From positions 1,926-22,447 of the forward strand of contig OUQQ01000353.1 in NCBI GenBank assembly GCA_900404475.1: a stretch of DNA of 20,522 nt, read 5' to 3'. Below the pieces are notes generated by a model. The model saw nothing but the letters and a program-made list of their open reading frames with translations, had not been told where the DNA came from and did not search any database. A program made the translations under genes and the position numbers. Source of the stretch: Spongospora subterranea. Its lineage: Eukaryota > Endomyxa > Phytomyxea > Plasmodiophorida > Plasmodiophoridae. Shown here piece after piece: positions 2,685 through 20,075 of the stretch (position 1 is its first letter; each line of letters opens with the position of its first letter).

Positions 2685-3623
2685 CTAACTCAAACCGAAT
2701 ATCAGATCTTTGAACTTCTCGGCGTTGATGTTGTCGCCGAAGTATTTGGAGCGCATGGCGAAAAACGAATCCGCTGTTAGCAATGCATCGCTGCCCGATT
2801 GGTGTTCAGGCCCTATCCTGGAAACGTTCAGTCCATTTGCCAATTGCGACAATCCACCACGCAGCGCTTCACAAGACCTAAAAAATGTTTAGAAGAAGAG
2901 ACAAAATAAACAAACAAAGAAGCAAAACCTCATGAGGTACTTCAGGTCATAAATATTAGGGAAGTAAATCTGTACGAGATCCAGAAAGGCTGTGTGGGTT
3001 TTGGGCAATGGAAGTGCCGACAGCATTCGCAGCAGATACGCGAAATCGAATCCGGAATGGAAACCGATCCAGGAGACGTCCGGATTCAGAACAAGTCCAG
3101 ATACCATGATATGCTCGGCGAATAGCTGACTCTCAATCCCCCGACGAGCCAGCTCACTGAAATCAATTCCTGCCGCCATTAGAATCTCGATCGAGTCTTG
3201 TGAGAACATATCGGAACTGAAAAAAACCAAAAAATCAGTGGCTTTGATCGAATTTGAAAACCACACAGTACTTGATGTCGAATTTTAAATTAAATTGCCA
3301 GGTATGGATTGGCTCTGGCTTATTATTATGTTCATCGGCAAATGAGAACGCAACTTGAATTAATTGCAGAAGGTCAACGTTGGACTGAGCTGACATCGTT
3401 AGCTGGCAGTGAATAGAAAGAAGCGATATGGACTGACCCGAACAATTTGATAGCGATATAACAAGGGAGCATCAGCGGTGAACGATCCGATTGGGCGGAT
3501 AACGACACCGGGAAATTCAGTATCGACCGAGATGAATGGATATCTATCCACCACATCCATCATACCATCTAGTTCCTCTAATAGGTTATCATTCCATACT
3601 TCTCTGATGCCCATGCTCTTCAT
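2685..3623 (-). CDS. CAF1: CAF1/POP2 deadenylase, catalytic subunit of CCR4-NOT
   Basis: This is a DEDD-family 3'-5' exoribonuclease that shortens mRNA poly(A) tails as part of the CCR4-NOT complex. Four exons are clear: 3623-3438, 3384-3272, 3216-2929 and 2877-2685, giving about 259 residues. Introns of 53, 55 and 51 bp all have GT-AG ends and restore the frame. The expected motifs are in order: DTEFPG (Asp34, Glu36), a WQFNLKF block, SQDSIE, FHSGFDF (Asp157), YDLKYLM and GPEHQSGSDALLT (His221, Asp226). All four acidic catalytic residues and the His are kept. It is slightly shorter than the animal protein (about 285) because the C-terminal tail is short. The ATG at 3623 is followed by a second Met at codon 4, which could also serve. 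The gene looks functional although it sits between retrotransposon relics. Confidence 0.95.
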
Positions 3624-9261: not shown

Positions 9262-9771
9262 ATGGGCGCCATTTCATACGAGATATGGAGAGGTGCAGCG
9301 CCTTGGGCGGGCCAACTCTATCGGCTGGAGCTGGATCTGCGCCTTCAGTGCCTCAGGACCCATCTCGCTCAGGACAAGGACTGTGTATTCCCATTCGACA
9401 CTGATCCATCCACCGTTCATGTTGTCGCCGTTCATAATCAACTCGGCACTGATCACGTCGTCGGTTGTGTATTGTTCCATTACGAGGATCAGGTCAGGCC
9501 GGGCCTACACACTGGCCGTCTATTCCAGATGGCGGTGGCGCCATCCTATCGTCGCCAATCTATCGGCACCAGTCTCGTTCACTCCCTGGAATCCTATCTA
9601 CAGCAGGAACTCCCCGCCGACGCCAATCTCGCCATCTATCTTCACGCTCGTGTCAATGCGGTGCCGTTCTACAGCCAGCTGGAATATCGTGTCGATGGGG
9701 ACGAGTTCGAGGAAGTCGGGATTAAACACTATAATATGATCAAGACGATAACACACTCTAAATCCTCATAA
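9262..9771 (+). CDS. GNAT-family N-acetyltransferase, ElaA/YitI-like
   Basis: A single uninterrupted ORF of 169 residues. GNAT enzymes move an acetyl group from acetyl-CoA to an amine; the substrate here is unknown. The fold's signatures are in order: an N-terminal helix (LYRLELDLRLQCLR), beta strands with VVGCVLFH, the motif A core RLFQMAVAPSYRRQSIGTSL (residues about 87-106), in which R-R-Q-S-I-G is the acetyl-CoA pyrophosphate loop, and a late LHARVNAVPFYSQLEY block (strand, Asn and Tyr typical of motif B). The ending EFEEVGIKHYNM resembles the 'F.E.GIPH..M' end of ElaA-like proteins. The loop has Ser-Ile-Gly where Gly-x-Gly is more usual. The ATG is the first plausible one and gives a full-length domain. 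It has no intron although neighbours are intron-rich, and it converges with the WD40 gene. Confidence 0.9.
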   Translation: MGAISYEIWRGAAPWAGQLYRLELDLRLQCLRTHLAQDKDCVFPFDTDPSTVHVVAVHNQLGTDHVVGCVLFHYEDQVRPGLHTGRLFQMAVAPSYRRQSIGTSLVHSLESYLQQELPADANLAIYLHARVNAVPFYSQLEYRVDGDEFEEVGIKHYNMIKTITHSKSS

Positions 9772-10186: not shown

Positions 10187-13100
10187 TCAGGAACTGACAA
10201 GCGATTTCACATGACGATTATCGTTCGATTGATGGGAAGAGCTGAGGGTGATCGCCTTCAGTCTCATCCAGTAGTCGTTGTCGTCAATATTACCACGATC
10301 TGTTCGTGATCCCCCTTTAGCCCGATAATCTTTCGACCCGTCTCCGTTCTCGTCGTTTGACGAAACCGATAGGAACTGGACCGGATCCGGTGCCTTAGCC
10401 GGGGATTGCCACGAACTAGGGCTGAATAGATCCCATGGATCGCGATCATTGGCGAACATGCCGATAAGCGCCCCGTCCATTGACCACAACAGTATTCGCC
10501 GATCATCTGATCCACTAACGATCATACGATATTCATTGACAATATCTACAGAATCAGTTCAACGAGAGCGCGTTGGTCGTGGTTCGGGGGACGATATCGA
10601 CCAACCTATACTGATAATGGATTTATCGTGACCTCTCCATGATCGACACAGGATAGGGCGAATCTCCCTCAGATTATCCGTTCTCCATATCTTGATATCG
10701 CCATTACCGTGACCGGTGATGATCATCTGATCGCCGTCGTCTTTCGCCATGTCGCTAATCGAATCGCCCTTATTCTGGATCAGCCACAGCTCGGCCCAGT
10801 CCTTCCCGCCATCATACGCCCGGATGTGCCCATCGGCCCCGGTCGATATTAACACCCTGAACTCCCCCGACCACAACAGCGCCTCTACGCTCTCCCCAGC
10901 GTACACTTTCTTCTTCACCGCCTTCGACTCCAAACTCCATATCACAACGCACCCATCCCTGCCGCCGGTCGCCAGCCAGCTATTCGTGCACGGTCGGCAG
11001 CAGGTGACGTCGCCCTGATGTCCCTTGCTCCCGCCGTATATGATGCTGTCGGGGGCCAGCACGCTCTGTCCCGTATCCGCCCAGATCCGAACTCGCCCGT
11101 CCCACCCGCACGAGATGATCGACTTCAGGGCGCTGTCGTCGAACCGCTGATCGACCAGGAAACTGATCGAGGTCACTTCGCGCTTGTCGGCGGCCGACGA
11201 CGACGACGATGATCCGCCCGATCCGCTACAGGTCGAAAGGCATTGGCCGCTGCTGAAGTTCCAGACCTTCACCGACCCGTCGTCGGTTCCGGTCAGGAGA
11301 CGGCGCATGGACGCGTCGAAGGCCATGGCGGTGAGTTTGGCGCGGGAGTGGGGCTGGCGAAACGAGCTGACGAGGCGGCCGGTGACGATATCCCAGACCT
11401 TGACCTGGCCGGCCAGGTCGGCACTGACCAGCTGTCGGAAAGGGGAATTGTAGACGATATCGCAGATATCGTCGTCGTGGCTATGGGGTTCGCGATCGCA
11501 GGTCGCCAATGACGGATACGATAACAATCGGCTGGAGCCGACCAACAGGGTCTTATGTTGTGCGATGAACGCCATCTTGCTGATGCGGTTTTCTGGGCGA
11601 TAATTACGATGGTCCGTTATGGTTTGCATACAGCGGAAGTTGCGAATATCCCAGATCTTGATGGTTTTATCGACCGCCAACGAGATGATCTGGTTGGCGT
11701 CCTCGTTCGAGAGGACCTGCTGAACGGCGGCGGTGTGCCCAGAGAGGGAGTTGACCTCCCGGCAACGGAACGGATCCCAGACCGATATTCGCCGGGACGA
11801 ACCGCACGAGATCATCAATTTATATCCGGGACAGTAATCGAACGAATAAACGCCCTTGTTATGACCGGTGTATCGCTTTCGAACTAAATCCTATTCGGGA
11901 ATCGATTAGGTCAATGGAGCGGATCCGGGTTCAGGTTCTGACCGATCGTTTCTCGATATCTGTGAATATGACGGTGCGATCTAAGGAGCTGGTGATGAGG
12001 GCGTCGAGTTCCGGGACCCATTTGATATCGGTGATCCAGTCCGAGTGAATTTGGTTCAAATGGTGATATCGGACGGCGTTGCACTTGGGGGATTCATGGC
12101 TGCAGGTCGATAGTAATCCGTCGCAAGCGTGCCATTTATCGTGGAACGAGACCAGGGTTATGGTCCCCTGACTGTCGCCGATCGCCATCATGTCCTGTCG
12201 GGGCAGTATATTAGCGCACCACCATATAATCGACGGACACCGGAGGATCGGCCGACCGATTGAGTGGACGGGATTGACGTGCAACAGACCGGCATATGGT
12301 CAAGAACTGATCGAATATGGTGTGGGCGAACACCAGACCGCATCTCTTCGACGGTGAGATCATTGTTCCTGGTCGACGGGTCGTCGTTGAATCGCGACAC
12401 GAGCTCGAACGAGTTGGCGTCGAAGAAATGGATGGTCTGATCGGCGTTCACCATCGCAACGCGATTAGACTTGGGCAATACACATGAGCCGATAATCCAT
12501 GAACGGCCACATCTGACTGTTCGATAATGTGATCGATCTTTACAGCCCCAAACCTGATTTATTCATCGGTTCGGATATGACTGGGGTGTTCCTCAAATTG
12601 ACGGGACCGACCTTGAACGTCCCATCTCTACTGGCCGTCAGGTATTTGTCGGATTTGGGAATATACAATATATCTTCGATCATATCGCGATGATAGTGAA
12701 GATGGTTATCGGCAGGTTCCGATACGGGAGATGACACGAATTTGTCAAACTAAATGGCGAAAACAGTTTGCGTTGGAGTATTTGATCAAGGAAACGGGTC
12801 GAAAATGAGATTTGCTGATTTTACATTGCGATCTGGAATATCGTTCGCTTGGCTCTCCATCACCAAATAGCTCGTGAATTCGTCCCAATCCACAGTCCCG
12901 TCCGAGTTGGCGTCGATCTTCATAAAGAGGTGGGTCAGCTCTTGCCGCCCCGCCGTCTCCTTCACCTTCAGCACATCGGCGAGCAACGACACGAACTGCG
13001 ATCAATATATGTCACAACAGTTGGACGACGATGGTGATCGGGCTCGTTCGCAACAAATACCTCGTCTTCGAACAATCCTTTCATCCCGCTCTCACCGGCG

Positions 13101-14436: not shown

Positions 14437-17400
14437 TCAACTTGATATAAAAAAAAAGGATTGTTTATTGAACAAAACAAACGCGAAATATTCGGTCAAG
14501 TGATAGAGCAGGGGCATTCCAAAGTACGGCGAGGACGATTCGCTCTTCACCCGATTGATAACAGTTTGATAGTTCATTACCCGAAGTGCGACATTCGCAA
14601 AAGTCGATTGTAAAGTTCGTTTTATCGGACCCAATGGCTGTTGCTGATGTGGTCGTTATCGCTGTTGTTAGCACCGAGGCAACAGTTTTTGCAGTAAAAT
14701 TGCAATGTATTCCCAATAATGACAGTGACGCCTGGTTATTTTTTCATTATCAACTCACTTGATGTTCGCCTATGACCTCAGGCGTGAGGAAATCGAGACA
14801 TTCTCGCTTCTGAATATCGCTTCCCAACGAGAACTCCCATTTTCTACAAGATGAACACACAATCACATAAACCGCCCAATAGAGACGCTGAATCGTACCC
14901 TTGCTTCGTCCTATCCGCCAATTTCCGAATAAAACTCCTAAACCGTTGGTATTGTATGGACTCGGCATCATGTCTGATAGGTCATGTTCAAAATAAGGGA
15001 AGAATACACATACACACGAGGTGAATACTGCTTTTTGGGGTCATAAATGCGAAATGCGATCAACTCATCGCGCCTATTGACAGCGCCTTCAGACAATACA
15101 ACTAAGATCGTACAGCAGGATCATCTACCTGAGGGACTTATAGGAACCAGAAAATGCGGTCTCTGAACAGATCTGACGATAACGAAGAGCGAAGAACGCA
15201 TTGAATAACATTCCGCCTTCAACAAGATTCGTAATCAAAGTTTCACTGTGAGAATCGATATATCAATATTGGTATATTATGGATAGGACGATCGGTAAAC
15301 AATTGCCACCTTGAGCACGATTCCAGAAGTGACTTCAACCTCGACTCAATCAGGACGTGACCAATGCTCTCTATTGTGGCGATATGGACATCAATGTACT
15401 CAAAGAACGGGGCCAGTAGATTGTTCCTAGCACCGATGGTGATCAGCGGATGATGATGACGATAGCTAGAGCTGACTGCGAATACCAATCCGATTCCTGC
15501 CATAAATGTCCATCTCCATCCATCAGGTTCCTGATAATCAGCACATAGAATAAGGGGCACGACAGCCGCTATCGCCCAAATACCGCCATTACCGCTGCAA
15601 ATTTGAGAATTTGATCATTAGTTCCCCAGCAACAGCAGCGACTGTCGAGGGTTTTTCGCCGTTCAGCAAATCCTCACCCTCAAACCCGACTGGAGGTTTG
15701 AGGACGATTATGGATATCAACTTCTGCAGAACGAAATCGCGCCTGGAGACACATTCAGGCGACCGTCAATGTCAGATGCGGAATTGTTACGGGTGATTTT
15801 GCTCCACAAGCAATGACATTTTCGATTCCTTGGCCTCCCTTTCGATCAACTTGACCAAACTGAGATTGAGCCCGAGACGATTTTTTTCAACTTTCCCAAT
15901 ATGGAAGTCAAGGTAATCGAAGAACGGAGACAGAAGCTGTTCCCTAATGAAAAAGAAGATCAGTGGATGGCGACGATAGAATAAAATTGACTGGGAATAC
16001 CAATCAGGTTCCTTCAGGAAATTCGCATCACAAAGAAGTCTTAGAGAAACCACATACAATGAGGGGCACGACCACATTTATCGATCCGATACCGCAATTA
16101 CCGTTGCAAACGTGAAACACCGAACTTCGATTTCCGTTCGGCTCCCTGCGAATCTTTCGCCTCATTTAAGAACTCGACAACATGGTTGGAGTCGATCATG
16201 GAGATGAACTCGGTCAAGAATCGGTGGCGTCTGGAAAACAGAGTCAGTCGACAGGCAATCTCAAATCCGGAATGGTTCAGGATATGGTTCTCCCAGTTCC
16301 TTGCGCTCGTACCGACGATTTTGCTCCAACCGCAAGTGATCCTTCTCTTTGTCGAAGTGATTTTTAACTAATTCGCGCAAAGCGGGATTCTCCAAAAAAT
16401 TCATAAGAGGATCGAGAATGCAATTACTGAATAGCCCCATGATTGAAAAATTATCAAACCATAATCTCACAAAGTTCTTACATGAAGTTCTTTTCTAACC
16501 TAAAACCCAGATCTGATTGGATCGGAACCAACATTTCGTCAACCAGCGATTTCTCACTCCTGTTGATCATGTTGACAGCTTCCTGGCCGAACAAGACGTG
16601 TATGCACCCGCTGAATATGAAACAGTTATGAATCGGATCACAAGAACGGGAAGGCGGCTTACTCAATGCCGAGAAGTTGCATGACTTTCAACAGCACATC
16701 GTAGCGATCATTGAGCTCTGCAGGAACGTTGCTACAAACAGGATTTCGGATAAATAATTGTGATCATGACGGCGAGTAACCATCTCGTACATGATTTTAA
16801 ACAGATTTCTGAGGGCACAGACAGCGGTACGTTTTTCGAGCATTTTCAACACAAGTTCGTCAAAGTTTCTCTTTTGGTCTTTCACTGAATATTCATAATC
16901 GTAAGAACGCTTGCTAAGAGCACGAAATCAGGGGAAGATTATGATCATAGCGGGATGTCAGTACAAGAATGGGTAAAGGTCCATAAGGGCTTCCACAAAC
17001 TCAGCAGATTTAAGCACATCAGCGGATGGAGGTTTGCTATTGACACGATTTATATGTTGATGACAGCTGTGAAGGGGCTGAACGATCCCGTACAAACTAG
17101 AATCCGGGTTGAGATCAGATGCGAGCAAGTTCCGTACAAGGGGATCAATAGCAGGAGGAAGTTTCCTATGGATAGGGAATAAGATAATGATTATGGCCGA
17201 GCTGAACGAGTTGGTACAAGTTTTCATAAAACAATTGTTCAAGCGCTTTCACCTCCGCATCAGATCTGACCAAGTTCCGCAGATGAAGCTCAACATTGGA
17301 AGGAACGCCTCTATGGACAGGAAATCAGAAATTCATTTCGATCATGTCGGGGGTTAATGGGGTCGTACAGGAAGTGAAACTGCGCTTCAGGAGATCCGGC

Positions 17401-18946
17401 ATCGTCACCAAATTCGAGCATCCTGATAACAGTGCGGGCACGATGGGAACGAGTTTGGCTATGGACAAATAATAGGTATTGATTATGATCATGATGGTTC
17501 TGACCGATCCCGTACAAGAATTGAATCAGACCACGAAGGGCTGCCGCATCCGCACCAGATTCGAGCATAATTCTTACAAGACGCGCATTAGCGGTCGGAT
17601 GTTTGCTATATATATGGTCAGGAAATGATGATCATGACTGGGCTGAACGATTTCGTACAAGAATGAGGACAGTTGTTTAAGTGCTTCCGTATCCGCATCA
17701 GAGTCGAGCAACTTCCATCCAAGGCGCCCAACCTCGGAAGGTGGTTGGCTATGAACAGGAAATTCAATAATGATCAAAAGGGGGTGAACGATCCCGTACA
17801 AGACTGATTGAATGACTTCCTCATCAACATCATATTGGCGCAACAACTCTACAAGACGATCTATATCGGAAGGATGGTCTCTATATAGATAGAAAATTAG
17901 ATTATGATCATTTTGACGGGGGGGAACGATCACTTACAAGAGTGGAAACAGTTTTTCTTGTGATGGCACATCCCCATCATATATCATCATGCGCCACACC
18001 ATATGCCCAGCGTTTCGAGGACTGTCACAATGGAAAGGAATCAAATGATTATGATGATGACCGGACTGAACCATTAAGTACAAGAGTGAAATCAGGTCAC
18101 TAATGACTTCAATCTCCGCATTAGACATTGCCAACTTCCACACAAGTCGCACAAGGTCGGCAGTGCAGTCACTATGGACAGGAAATTAGATGATGATACT
18201 GGCGTTGTTCAACGATTGTCCTACAACATGGAAAACGTGTGCTTAAAGGCCGTCAAAGGATTCCTCAAAAACACGATAGCCGCACTGGGCGATTTCAGTT
18301 CAGAAAACTGAAAATTCCAAAATTCGTGTCAAACCCGACATGATGCGATTGAACAATTTGGCAATATGGCGCATTTTCATCTCTTCCCGCTTTGACGCTG
18401 TCACCTTCTCATCAGTGATCACCGACAACAGATTGGTCAAATCTTGGCGGATCAGACGGCGAAGGTAGATGCTGTTAATGACCAGACATGGTTCGGCGGA
18501 TGAAACGAGGGACGATGACAATATCGGCTTACACAATGCCGAAATCTGTTGGAAGATTGGACATCCCTTCTTGATTGTCAGGGTGACTGCTATCGTCTCG
18601 GGGTTGATCGATATCGTACAGGAACGGGCACATTGTTGTAATAGCTCGCTGAGCCGCAGCATATTCGCGATCTTTATGTTTTGTCAACCACGCGCCGTAG
18701 CTTCTGTAAAACGGTATCATGATTGGAAAACGATATTTGCGGTCGGGGCCGAATCCTGTTTTTACATATCTCCTTCCATATAAGCTTCGTAGGCTTCCCA
18801 TCTACCGTCGTCCTCACTGCAAAAACGGGGTCAATCGATTATTACGATCAGTTGGTCTAATCCTGTTAATACCTATCGGATGAACCAGAAACCAGGAGAA
18901 TCACCGATATCAATGCGATAGTGAACCAGAGCAGCATCGAGCACAT
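14437..18946 (-). CDS. Predicted secreted protein with tandem exon-encoded helical repeats, unknown family
   Basis: I rebuilt 26 exons by GT-AG sites and frame: 18946-18873, 18816-18766, 18703-18533, 18471-18340, 18284-18225, 18171-18082, 18021-17938, 17880-17800, 17748-17659, 17605-17516, 17458-17369, 17310-17218, 17165-17094, 17036-16965, 16913-16791, 16731-16663, 16610-16482, 16426-16313, 16230-16102, 16039-15791, 15742-15593, 15530-15310, 15245-15148, 15101-15018, 14973-14759, 14643-14437. This gives about 1,012 residues. Exon 1 starts MCSMLLWFTIALISVILLVS, a typical signal peptide, so secretion or ER entry is inferred. The middle is an array of short helical repeats (for example RLVRIMLESGADAAALRGL, RLGWKLLDSDADTEALKQL). 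Nearly all introns are phase 2. Exon 22 is 221 bp and breaks the frame (see findings). The third exon could instead end at 18620. The last junctions (phases 1, 1, 0) and last exon are less certain. An AATAAA (minus) lies at 14469-14464. No known domain is recognised. Confidence 0.75.
14464..14469 (-). terminator. AATAAA poly(A) signal candidate
   Basis: On the minus strand AATAAA occurs in the last exon of the helical-repeat gene, just before the predicted stop. It is the canonical polyadenylation signal hexamer, but its position inside the modelled CDS means either the last exon is mis-modelled (a stop in another frame lies at about 14467) or the hexamer is coincidental. Confidence 0.35.
15310..16230 (-). 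repeat. Duplicated exon pair (two copies in tandem)
   Basis: Copy 1 is exons 16230-16102 and 16039-15791; copy 2 is exons 15742-15593 and 15530-15310. The introns inside each pair are both 62 bp and plainly related: GTAATTGCGGTATCGG... against GTAATGGCGGTATTTG..., then GTCGTGCCCCTCATTGTATG against GTCGTGCCCCTTATTCTATG. Protein matches include FISMI/LISII, SRLQR/SNLQR, EPDWYSQS/ESDWYSQS and LLSPFFDYLDFHI/LLAPFFEYIDVHI. Confidence 0.88.
16732..18224 (-). repeat. Tandem array of exon-plus-intron units
   Basis: Ten exons (60-93 bp, plus one of 123 bp at 16913-16791) are each followed by a 51-60-bp intron. Introns share the layout GTACGGGATCGTTCA, then a TGATCATAATC-like core about 22-30 bases in, and an ending like TTCCTGTCCATAG. 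The exons start with one base and end with two, so every unit is symmetric (phase 2-2). The exon ends usually read TTCTT before GTAC. Protein units share P-S/T-x4-RLV-x2-LL-x-S/D-DAD-x-EAL-x2-L-x2-F. Unit lengths are about 110-180 bp. The introns, which are not translated, resemble one another more clearly than several of the protein units do. This shows duplication of whole genomic units. Confidence 0.88.
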
Positions 18947-19201: not shown

Positions 19202-20075
19202 TTGTTTATTGATTGGGCACTTTTGTCCCAATCTGAATGGGGACAAAATGGCGACGTTTATTCTGGCCAGCCAAGGCGACGCTATGCTCGCTGGGATCCA
19301 GATATCTACAACTTTATTCAGGAACTGATCAATGTAAATTCGTGTCTTTATATCGAAGAGTTACAGAACGAATTGAAAACAAAAAATAATTCCTGAATTG
19401 AACAACATTTCGATTCCGACAATATGCCGTGCTCTGCGACACGACCTCAAGATTAACAGAAAGGTCCTAGACAAACGAGCTCAAGACAGTCGGCTTGAAC
19501 AGGCTAAAGAGTTCTATTTAAAGCTGAACCCGATATATTCGTACCCCGAACACTTGGTGTTCATTGACGAAAGCAGCAAAGATGGGCGGGATTGCCTTAG
19601 ACGCCATGGATGGTCCAGGGTGAATACGCCTGCGATCGTGCATCAACCTTTTCAATGGGGAGCTCGAATTTCTAATTTGACAGCCTTTGACACAACAGGA
19701 TTCTTTTCCTGGGAGACAACTGCCGATACTTCCACTCGGCAGAAGTTTCACGATGCATTTTTACGATCAATCTGCCCATTTCTCCAGCCGTGGCCAATGC
19801 CAAGAAGCATCGTAATTCTTGACAACGCCAAAACTCATTTATACAAAGGATTAGAGGATGTGATTCATACAATCGGGGCACTGGATGATATATCTCCCAC
19901 CGTATTCACTTCAATTGAATCCAATTGAAAAAGGATTCGGTTTGCTCAAGGCGTGGCTCACGAAAAACGCGAAATTGGTTTTTCGTGAGTGTCCTGATAA
20001 GGTTTTCCAGGCTGCGATGCCACTTTGCACCAATTTCCAGCATTCTGGACACTATTTTTATGCTTCGTGTGGGTT
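19202..20075 (+). pseudogene. Tc1/mariner (IS630-type DDE) transposase, two frameshifts
   Basis: The N-terminal part (19202-19394) reads GQPRRRYARWDPDIYNFIQE and LYIEELQNEL, like the helix-turn-helix and linker of fungal-type mariner transposases. A one-base shift in an A-rich run near 19380-19390 moves reading to a second frame with SIPTICRALR. The catalytic blocks follow: VFIDESSKDGRD (first Asp, about 19558), SIVILDNAKTH (second Asp, about 19820), and, after a second shift near 19884, IYLPPYSLQLNPIEKGFG (catalytic Glu). The two last acidic residues are about 34 apart, typical for this superfamily. The C-terminal end (HYFYASCGF, about 20070) matches the usual 'FRHCGY' ending. All three catalytic residues remain, so the inactivation seems recent, unless the shifts are sequencing errors. 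Confidence 0.9.
19221..19248. repeat. 9-bp inverted repeat at the start of the transposase relic
   Basis: TTTTGTCCC (19221-19229) and GGGACAAAA (19240-19248) are perfect reverse complements around a 10-nt spacer. It lies inside the 5' end of the transposase reading frame. It may be part of a terminal or binding site for the element, but no matching copy was found at the other end. Confidence 0.7.

What the first reader, a model, noticed from the sequence alone, without database searches (positions are those of the whole stretch)
16732..18284. Gene that grows by duplicating whole exon-intron units
About eleven successive exons each code for one short helical repeat and are flanked by introns with a shared sequence (start GTACGGGATCGTTCA-like, core TGATCATAATC-like, end TTCCTGTCCATAG-like). 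Phase is always 2-2, so any number of units can be added or lost without breaking the frame. Seen directly: the repeated intron words and exon edges. Known: symmetric exons can be shuffled or duplicated freely. Inferred: unit number probably differs between strains or paralogues, creating length and surface diversity. I know of no described family with this layout.
Basis: partly seen in the sequence, partly recalled or inferred. Interest (0 to 1): 0.88.

Follow-up and report, generated by a model that had tools for sequence, protein, structure and literature searches.

The report
Gene built by copying exon-intron cassettes
In a genome that is most likely the potato powdery-scab parasite Spongospora, a gene for a probably secreted protein holds eleven back-to-back exon-intron cassettes whose exons match a deposited protein letter for letter, and its sister genes are predicted to hold from 1 to 13 such cassettes, so the gene has likely grown and shrunk by copying and losing whole cassettes without breaking its reading frame.

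Summary
On the minus strand, 11 introns of 51-60 bp (18224-16732) separate exons whose lengths are all divisible by three. A deposited protein, CRZ01530.1 of Spongospora subterranea (719 aa), matches 22 of 22 modelled exons letter for letter, so all 21 junctions are phase 2. The array is the middle of a longer gene (about 18946-14750) with a signal-peptide-like first exon. Five further genes of the family have 1, 1, 9, 13 and 13 array introns against 11 here, so whole units have been gained or lost. Each exon is predicted to form a two-helix hairpin. No Pfam or PDB family covers the protein. In the window the array introns resemble each other more than the exons do. The claim that no such layout is known is wrong: Tetrahymena 90-bp-exon LRR genes, brown-algal ROCO genes and aphid bicycle genes share it. 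New is an unrelated, probably secreted protein family in Rhizaria with this layout. Secretion, function and variation between isolates are untested.

The parts
14750..18946 (-). whole gene as modelled: about 27 exons; exons 1-22 (18946-15593) confirmed by CRZ01530.1, the rest predicted
   Evidence: 3' end supported by paralogue alignments reaching 14787-14741
18873..18946 (-). exon 1, signal-peptide-like (MCSMLLWFTIALISVILLVSGSSD)
   Evidence: hydrophobic core, Kyte-Doolittle mean 2.87 over residues 5-19; similar exon in C188, C660, C313; exact in P0121
18225..18816 (-). exons 2-5 before the array (18816-18766, 18703-18533, 18471-18340, 18284-18225)
   Evidence: identical to P0121 25-162
18172..18224 (-). 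array intron 1 (53 bp)
18082..18171 (-). array exon 1 (90 nt)
   Evidence: P0121 163-192
18022..18081 (-). array intron 2 (60 bp; open in frame, yet absent from P0121)
17938..18021 (-). array exon 2 (84 nt)
   Evidence: P0121 193-220
17881..17937 (-). array intron 3 (57 bp)
17800..17880 (-). array exon 3 (81 nt)
   Evidence: P0121 221-247
17749..17799 (-). array intron 4 (51 bp; open in frame, yet absent from P0121)
17659..17748 (-). array exon 4 (90 nt)
   Evidence: P0121 248-277
17606..17658 (-). array intron 5 (53 bp)
17516..17605 (-). array exon 5 (90 nt)
   Evidence: P0121 278-307; hairpin model (31 aa, last two residues read into the intron)
17459..17515 (-). array intron 6 (57 bp; open in frame, yet absent from P0121)
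17369..17458 (-). array exon 6 (90 nt)
   Evidence: P0121 308-337
17311..17368 (-). array intron 7 (58 bp)
17218..17310 (-). array exon 7 (93 nt)
   Evidence: P0121 338-368
17166..17217 (-). array intron 8 (52 bp)
17094..17165 (-). array exon 8 (72 nt)
   Evidence: P0121 369-392
17037..17093 (-). array intron 9 (57 bp; open in frame, yet absent from P0121)
16965..17036 (-). array exon 9 (72 nt)
   Evidence: P0121 393-416
16914..16964 (-). array intron 10 (51 bp)
16791..16913 (-). array exon 10 (123 nt)
   Evidence: P0121 417-457
16732..16790 (-). array intron 11 (59 bp)
16663..16731 (-). array exon 11 (69 nt); the apparent stop after it (GAGTAAGC) is a 5' splice site
   Evidence: P0121 458-480, protein continues
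15593..16610 (-). exons 17-22 after the array, all phase 2, introns without the array words
   Evidence: P0121 481-718; mean identity of array to six non-array introns 0.56, near the shuffled level
14750..15530 (-). predicted terminal exons beyond the deposited protein
   Evidence: phase 2 exons 15530-15486 and 15426-15319; the last ones change phase in the model; similar stretches in C188, C660, C313; exact ends uncertain

Best explanation
This is an intact, spliced gene for a likely secreted, predicted helical-repeat protein whose middle is a tandem array of symmetric (2-2) exon-intron units, and the array has likely changed length by unequal exchange of whole units between copies. Shown: the exons and the 21 phase 2 junctions of the window gene, and in the window array introns that resemble each other more than the exons do. 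Seen in sequence and by gene models: a family of six genes with 1 to 13 array introns. Predicted: a signal peptide, and one two-helix hairpin per exon, so that the array would stack as an alpha-solenoid. Inferred: because every junction splits a codon after its second base, any crossing-over between homologous points of two units keeps the frame, and introns that stay alike would give such exchange both a footing and a splice-safe place; the solenoid would then act as a binding surface of adjustable length outside the parasite's cell, probably towards the plant host.
For: CRZ01530.1 matches 22 of 22 exons exactly. Intron words alone predict in-frame, stop-free exons, in C188 with weights trained only on the window. 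Six genes carry 1, 1, 9, 11, 13, 13 array introns. In the unit tree window units 5, 6, 7 and 9 group with C188/C660 units 7, 8, 9 and 11, three of these four also with a C313 unit (supports 91/91, 96/91, 98/93, 94/95); 5' to them the genes have 4 (window), 6 (C188, C660) and 1 (C313) units: loss or gain of whole units. Window introns: mean identity 0.684 against 0.597 for exons, 34 of 36 pairs with intron above exon (9 of 11 units); 15 of 5000 random sets of nine introns are as alike, against 2318 of 5000 for exons. Hairpin model with mean pLDDT 87 from 36 aligned units. The eRF3 gene of the same genome has one phase 1 and one phase 0 intron (read by eye), so phase 2 is not a rule of the genome.
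Against: Unequal exchange was not observed; replication slippage or gene conversion would leave similar traces. Introns between C188 and C660 diverge about as fast as synonymous sites, so the likeness of introns in the window could be a family-specific constraint rather than exchange. In C188, C660 and C313 the intron excess over exons is smaller (0.640/0.588, 0.641/0.603, 0.625/0.583). The tree gives only 14 of 39 inner branches strong support, and window unit 8 does not group with its expected partners. dN/dS shows no positive selection. One exon of C188 breaks the frame, and one stretch of C313 (6822-6691) is ambiguous. The whole-protein model has mean pLDDT 40, so the solenoid is not shown. 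No secretion or host-contact evidence exists. That CRZ01530.1 is a transcript translation is recalled, not shown by a call.
Confidence: 0.72

Rival explanations
1. Ancient array under constraint: the units were duplicated once, long ago, and the array introns stay alike because they carry a splicing or regulatory signal of their own; unit number has changed rarely.
For: Where they resolve, units group by position across genes and not within genes, so much of the duplication predates the gene copies. Between distant genes, introns of non-matching units are about as alike as those of matching units (window-C313 0.652 against 0.632; window-C188 0.624 against 0.648).
Against: Six non-array introns of the same gene lack the words and are near shuffled identity, 0.56, so ordinary splicing does not need them. 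Unit number differs in 13 of the 15 pairs of genes. Window introns are more alike within the gene than random sets of family introns.
Confidence: 0.3
2. A decaying, untranscribed tandem repeat that only looks like exons and introns.
For: Tandem Repeats Finder saw nothing; open frames of the region are short; one exon of C188 breaks the frame, with a 160-bp intron before it.
Against: Exact match of 22 of 22 exons to a deposited protein; open, phase 2 array exons in the other genes too, but for the C188 exon and the ambiguous C313 stretch.
Confidence: 0.02
3. The units are degenerate ankyrin repeats, so this is an ordinary ankyrin gene with one repeat per exon.
For: The unit profile hits 92 PDB sequences at E up to 10; most of the 60 shown are ankyrin or DARPin chains, best E 1.8e-6 for a whole chain, through 11-17 residues like LVRKLLESGAD, though in nearly every row no single stretch passes on its own. 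Ankyrin is best of eight typed repeat consensi, probability 10% over 13 columns, next PUM 3%. Plasmodiophorid secretomes are ankyrin-rich (PMC4471660, passages).
Against: No Pfam ankyrin hit for the whole protein at E up to 10 or for any of 36 units at E up to 1; no TPLH-like motif; units of about 30, not 33 residues.
Confidence: 0.25

Closest known systems
Tetrahymena 90-bp-exon LRR genes (PMC6564038; abstract and passages read)
   Same: tandem exon/intron arrays, exons often exactly 90 bp, phase 2 introns, unit number varying among paralogues, unequal crossing over proposed by the authors
   Different: theirs are leucine-rich repeats, thousands of genes, longer introns (about 257 bp in T. 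thermophila group III), linked to a LINE-like element; here six genes found, no LRR match, 51-60 bp array introns, and phase 2 covers the confirmed non-array exons too. The authors suggest the layout evolved only once, in Tetrahymena
Brown-algal ROCO (LRR) and NB-TPR genes (PMC11378527; abstract and passages read)
   Same: one repeat per symmetric exon, phase 2 (ROCO), exon shuffling within the gene
   Different: 72-bp LRR exons in ROCO GTPases, diversifying selection and alternative splicing reported; here another repeat, a signal-like start, no positive selection shown
Aphid bicycle and megacycle genes (PMC9168663; passages read)
   Same: many small internal exons, almost all phase 2, fast-evolving proteins of plant parasites, internal tandem duplication in megacycle
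   Different: bicycle proteins carry CYC motifs; P0121 has 7 cysteines and no CYC. No sequence comparison with bicycle proteins was run, apart from the protein search that returned only CRZ01530.1
Vertebrate gonadotrophin-receptor LRR exons (named in a passage of PMC11378527)
   Same: introns all phase 2, LRR domain grown from one prototypic exon
   Different: LRR, receptor; a conserved number of exons (recalled)

Membership tests
Tetrahymena-type 90-bp-exon array genes | tandem exons of exactly 90 bp | tested here: inconclusive
   4 of 11 (window), 6 of 13 (C188), 8 of 13 (C660), 4 of the 6 C313 exons examined
Tetrahymena-type 90-bp-exon array genes | phase 2 introns on both sides of array exons | tested here: met
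   all 11 array introns of the window are phase 2, confirmed by P0121
Tetrahymena-type 90-bp-exon array genes | leucine-rich repeats | tested here: not met
   no LRR among Pfam matches at E up to 10; LRR consensus probability 0.1%
Bicycle genes | phase 2 internal exons and many small exons | tested here: met
   21 of 21 confirmed junctions phase 2, internal exons 39-171 nt
Bicycle genes | CYC motifs | tested here: not met
   no CYC and no C-x-C in P0121
Ankyrin repeat proteins | helix-turn-helix repeat with TPLH and GAD signatures, about 33 residues (recalled definition) | tested here: not met
   LLESGAD-like stretch present, TPLH-like motif absent, no Pfam ankyrin match
Secreted proteins of plasmodiophorids | N-terminal signal peptide, no later membrane segment | tested here: inconclusive
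   hydrophobic start; the most hydrophobic later 19-residue window averages 1.73, a borderline value; no signal-peptide predictor was available
Plant-pathogen effectors | delivery to, and action in, the host | not testable with these tools
   no expression, localisation or phenotype data

The most novel reading that the evidence does not exclude
A plant parasite of the Rhizaria invented, independently of Tetrahymena, brown algae and aphids, a gene-growing engine: near-uniform phase 2 exon-intron cassettes in which the introns are kept alike as recombination footholds while the exons diverge, giving a family of secreted helical solenoids whose length, from a single cassette junction to a dozen repeats, is tuned by copying cassettes at the plant interface. 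It would be a further origin of a layout that its describers in Tetrahymena thought had evolved only once.
Probability: 0.3. Interest if true: 0.82.

Novelty: new variant of a known kind. Interest (0 to 1): 0.62.

Why it matters
A layout that was proposed to have arisen once, in ciliates, and is described separately in brown algae and aphids, also exists in an unrelated lineage on an unrelated protein. That makes a testable rule: small phase 2 exons with near-copied introns would be a repeatable route to length-variable binding proteins. Six sister genes with 1 to 13 array introns in one genome are a natural series for studying how exon arrays start and grow, and for asking whether introns act as recombination sites. 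The family may be restricted to this lineage (one hit among 7996 scored candidates, a search of limited sensitivity), which would make it useful as a marker for a poorly annotated crop parasite.

Tried and rejected
Tandem Repeats Finder found nothing. A protein search with one open frame found no homologue. Whole-protein folding without an alignment gave mean pLDDT 40 and was not used beyond 'helical'; no fold search was run. Placing paralogue exon peptides on P0121 by MAFFT to deepen an alignment failed: most array pieces spread over P0121 91-307, so only the single-unit alignment was folded. The first gene models of C188 and C660 invented tiny exons, and that script stopped with an error in C313; they were replaced. 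In one search two boundaries were mis-set by hand: the C188 exon from 1971 (acceptor one base off, read with a stop) and C313 from 6766, so that everything after C313 exon 10 is out of frame there (9 of its 21 exons with stops); one search is therefore used only for the window (24 exons) and C660 (24 exons), both without stops and with all internal exons divisible by three. Ankyrin membership was considered and rejected. A link to mobile elements like that in Tetrahymena was not pursued beyond noting a DDE transposase frame. A paper search for CRZ01530 found none; a combined term search on exon shuffling, intron phase and plasmodiophorids, of which 40 of 200 papers were listed, showed no title on such a family in this group. 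A search for a paper tying CRZ numbers to the transcriptome found none.

Rows dropped: C188 exon 1971/1972-2054 was left out of the unit alignments, identity tables and tree; C313 units after 6823 were left out of the same; window array exons 10 and 11 and the last two units of C188 and C660 were left out of A1, A3 and the identity tables (36 units used) but are in the tree (42 units). dN/dS used 18 of the 23 exon pairs 2-24; five pairs of unequal length were skipped and exon 1 was not compared.
Full report
What the window is. The window lies in a 20.6-Mb assembly of 679 contigs. An eRF3 frame from that assembly is 86% identical to an unnamed protein and 79% to Plasmodiophora brassicae; the next named hit, Chara braunii, is at 57%, and no near-identical eRF3 is among the 120 listed. 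The gene in question matches CRZ01530.1 of Spongospora subterranea exactly over 718 residues. I therefore take the organism to be S. subterranea (Rhizaria, Phytomyxea), the potato powdery-scab parasite. This is an inference from identity; no call names the genome.

The observation. Reading the minus strand, eleven introns of 51-60 bp share a start (GTACGGGATCGTTCA), a core (TGATCATAATC) and an end (TTCCTGTCCATAG). A chain of introns chosen by these words only, with no frame information, gave 10 of 10 internal window exons divisible by three and stop-free; the weights came from the same introns, so this is not independent. The same weights on C188 are independent: 11 of 12 exons divisible by three and 12 of 12 stop-free, while the chains in C660 and C313 broke off early (3 of 3 and 2 of 2 exons good). 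With window and C188 weights and a lower threshold, C313 gave 9 of 9 on both counts, and C660 gave 9 of 10 and 8 of 10, with two places where the chain jumped over sites.

Splicing. A profile of four paralogues, exon peptides kept apart by X, had one hit at E up to 1 among 7996 scored candidates: CRZ01530.1, 719 aa. Exon by exon, 22 of 22 predicted exons (18946-15593) are letter-identical to it, including the residue formed at each of the 21 junctions. All 21 introns are phase 2. Four array introns (at 18081, 17799, 17515, 17093) are divisible by three and open in frame, yet absent from the protein, so they too are removed. The protein ends with R, which reading into the next intron would give (CGG TAA); the genome and the paralogues carry further exon-like stretches, so that record may stem from a retained intron. 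Schwelm et al. 2015 deposit the S. subterranea transcriptome as HACM01000001-HACM01012732 (PMC4471660, passages); that CRZ numbers belong to it is my recollection, and a paper search did not confirm it. If the record were only a gene prediction, the proof of splicing would rest on the frame evidence.

The gene. Exon 1 encodes MCSMLLWFTIALISVILLVSGSSD, a signal-peptide-like start whose relatives occur in C188, C660 and C313. Four exons follow, then the array (18224-16663), then six more confirmed exons, and predicted ones to about 14750. The apparent stop at the end of the array is a 5' splice site. Phase 2 is not a rule of this genome: the eRF3 gene shows one phase 1 and one phase 0 intron (read by eye from the alignment).

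The family. The window gene has 11 array introns. C188 and C660 have 13 each, C313 (minus strand) has 9 with one uncertain stretch at 6822-6691. One C188 array exon breaks the frame, behind a 160-bp intron. Two further genes on the plus strand of C313 have a single array intron between exons with unit-like ends; one of these introns begins GTACGGGATCGTTCAT and ends CCCTGTCCATAG. Their models are predictions. Partial copies of the 3' part lie in C660 and C313. A 21-base array word with up to 3 mismatches has 11 places in the genome, 10 of them in the four family contigs, and 0 in the reversed-pattern control. The genome could not be searched with the unit model, so more members may exist.

How units relate. 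A tree of 42 units (148 columns; 14 of 39 inner branches strongly supported) pairs C188 with C660 units, and groups window units 5, 6, 7 and 9 with C188/C660 units 7, 8, 9 and 11 (supports 91/91, 96/91, 98/93, 94/95), three of these four also with a C313 unit. Window unit 8 and C660 unit 5 stay unplaced, the latter because its C188 partner was left out. Upstream of these the genes have 4, 6, 6 and 1 units. So much of the duplication is older than the gene copies, while the 5' half has changed in whole units since.

Introns against exons. In the window, nine units (two of eleven left out) have mean intron identity 0.684 and exon identity 0.597; introns exceed exons in 34 of 36 pairs; shuffled levels are 0.562 and 0.542. 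For C188, C660 and C313 the figures are 0.640/0.588 (36 of 45 pairs), 0.641/0.603 (40 of 55) and 0.625/0.583 (13 of 15). Six non-array introns of the same gene stand at 0.565 to each other and 0.560 to array introns. Between distant genes (five units each), introns of matching units are hardly more alike than those of other units, sometimes less: window-C188 0.648 against 0.624, window-C660 0.647/0.623, window-C313 0.632/0.652, C188-C313 0.603/0.629, C660-C313 0.596/0.609. Exons keep their position in all of these, for example window-C313 0.683 against 0.564. Only 15 of 5000 random sets of nine family introns are as alike as those of the window (2 of 5000 without C660); for exons 2318 of 5000 (1563 without C660). 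This fits homogenisation among introns, or a family-specific constraint; the data do not separate the two. Between C188 and C660, introns and synonymous sites diverge similarly, dS is about 0.25, and dN/dS is 0.64 (0.44-0.98) in the array and 0.52 (0.35-0.80) outside, over 18 of 23 exon pairs. That is weak purifying selection, not positive selection.

The protein. No Pfam family (only PqqD, E 0.17) and no PDB relative (two matches, E 1.3 and 3). An alignment of 36 units folds as a two-helix hairpin with mean pLDDT 87; the whole protein without an alignment gives pLDDT 40 and mostly helices. The unit profile resembles ankyrin chains over 11-17 residues, a lead but not a membership: Pfam ankyrin matches and the TPLH motif are missing, and the profile comparison with an ankyrin consensus reaches only 10% probability.

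Mechanism. With every junction after the second codon base, adding or removing a unit cannot shift the frame. Like introns on both sides of each exon give unequal exchange a footing, and an exchange within them leaves splice sites intact. The paralogue series of 1, 1, 9, 11, 13 and 13 array introns is what such exchange would leave. Exchange itself was not seen. That the product is a secreted, length-adjustable binding surface is inferred from the signal-like start, the hairpin prediction and the parasite's life inside plant cells.

Place among known things. Tetrahymena LRR genes carry arrays of exactly 90-bp exons with more than 96% phase 2 flanks; their authors propose unequal crossing over and suggest the layout evolved only once (PMC6564038, abstract and passages). 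Brown-algal ROCO genes use 72-bp phase 2 LRR exons (PMC11378527, abstract and passages). Aphid bicycle genes have almost only phase 2 internal exons, about 17 exons on average, and a megacycle relative that appears to have grown by internal tandem duplication (PMC9168663, passages). The present family shares the architecture but fails the LRR and CYC criteria. It is thus a new variant of a known kind, with a new repeat, in a new lineage.

Noticed in passing
window 19398-19928 (+): DDE_3 superfamily transposase frame about 450 bp upstream of the gene's first exon (Pfam E 3.2e-11).
   Followed up: no
window 15542-15606 and 16051-16115 (-): The 3' part of the gene holds its own multi-exon direct repeat of about 510 bp (77% over 65 nt; peptides SPFFDYLDFHI and APFFEYIDVHI), so the gene may also have grown by a second, larger unit.
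   Followed up: partly
L009 1812-2054 (C188): One array unit of C188 has a 160-bp intron with extra AT-rich sequence and an exon that breaks the frame; this copy may be damaged or misassembled.
   Followed up: partly
window 15592-15531 (-): CRZ01530.1 ends where reading into this intron would give a stop, so a retained-intron form of the transcript may exist.
   Followed up: partly
window array introns at 18081, 17799, 17515, 17093: Four of 11 array introns are divisible by three and open in frame (LYGIVQP-like), so unspliced forms would still be translatable.
   Followed up: no
L068 4332-5491 and 8639-9867 (C313, +): Two short sister genes with a single array intron, possible ancestors or collapsed forms of the arrays; 5' and 3' ends not settled.
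   Followed up: partly
L069 8496-7957 (C660) and L068 235-600 (C313): Partial copies of the 3' part of the family.
   Followed up: no
window 10199-12995 (-): WD40-repeat gene, with EF-hand-like exons before it (WD40 by Pfam; EF-hand by eye); its modelled introns are mostly phase 0, unverified.
   Followed up: no
window 9262-9771 (+) and 2889-3266 (-): GNAT acetyltransferase frame and a CAF1-like ribonuclease fragment.
   Followed up: no
G000:C624:13178-13198 (L070): A lone 3-mismatch copy of the array-intron word outside the family contigs; the unit model found no unit around it.
   Followed up: yes
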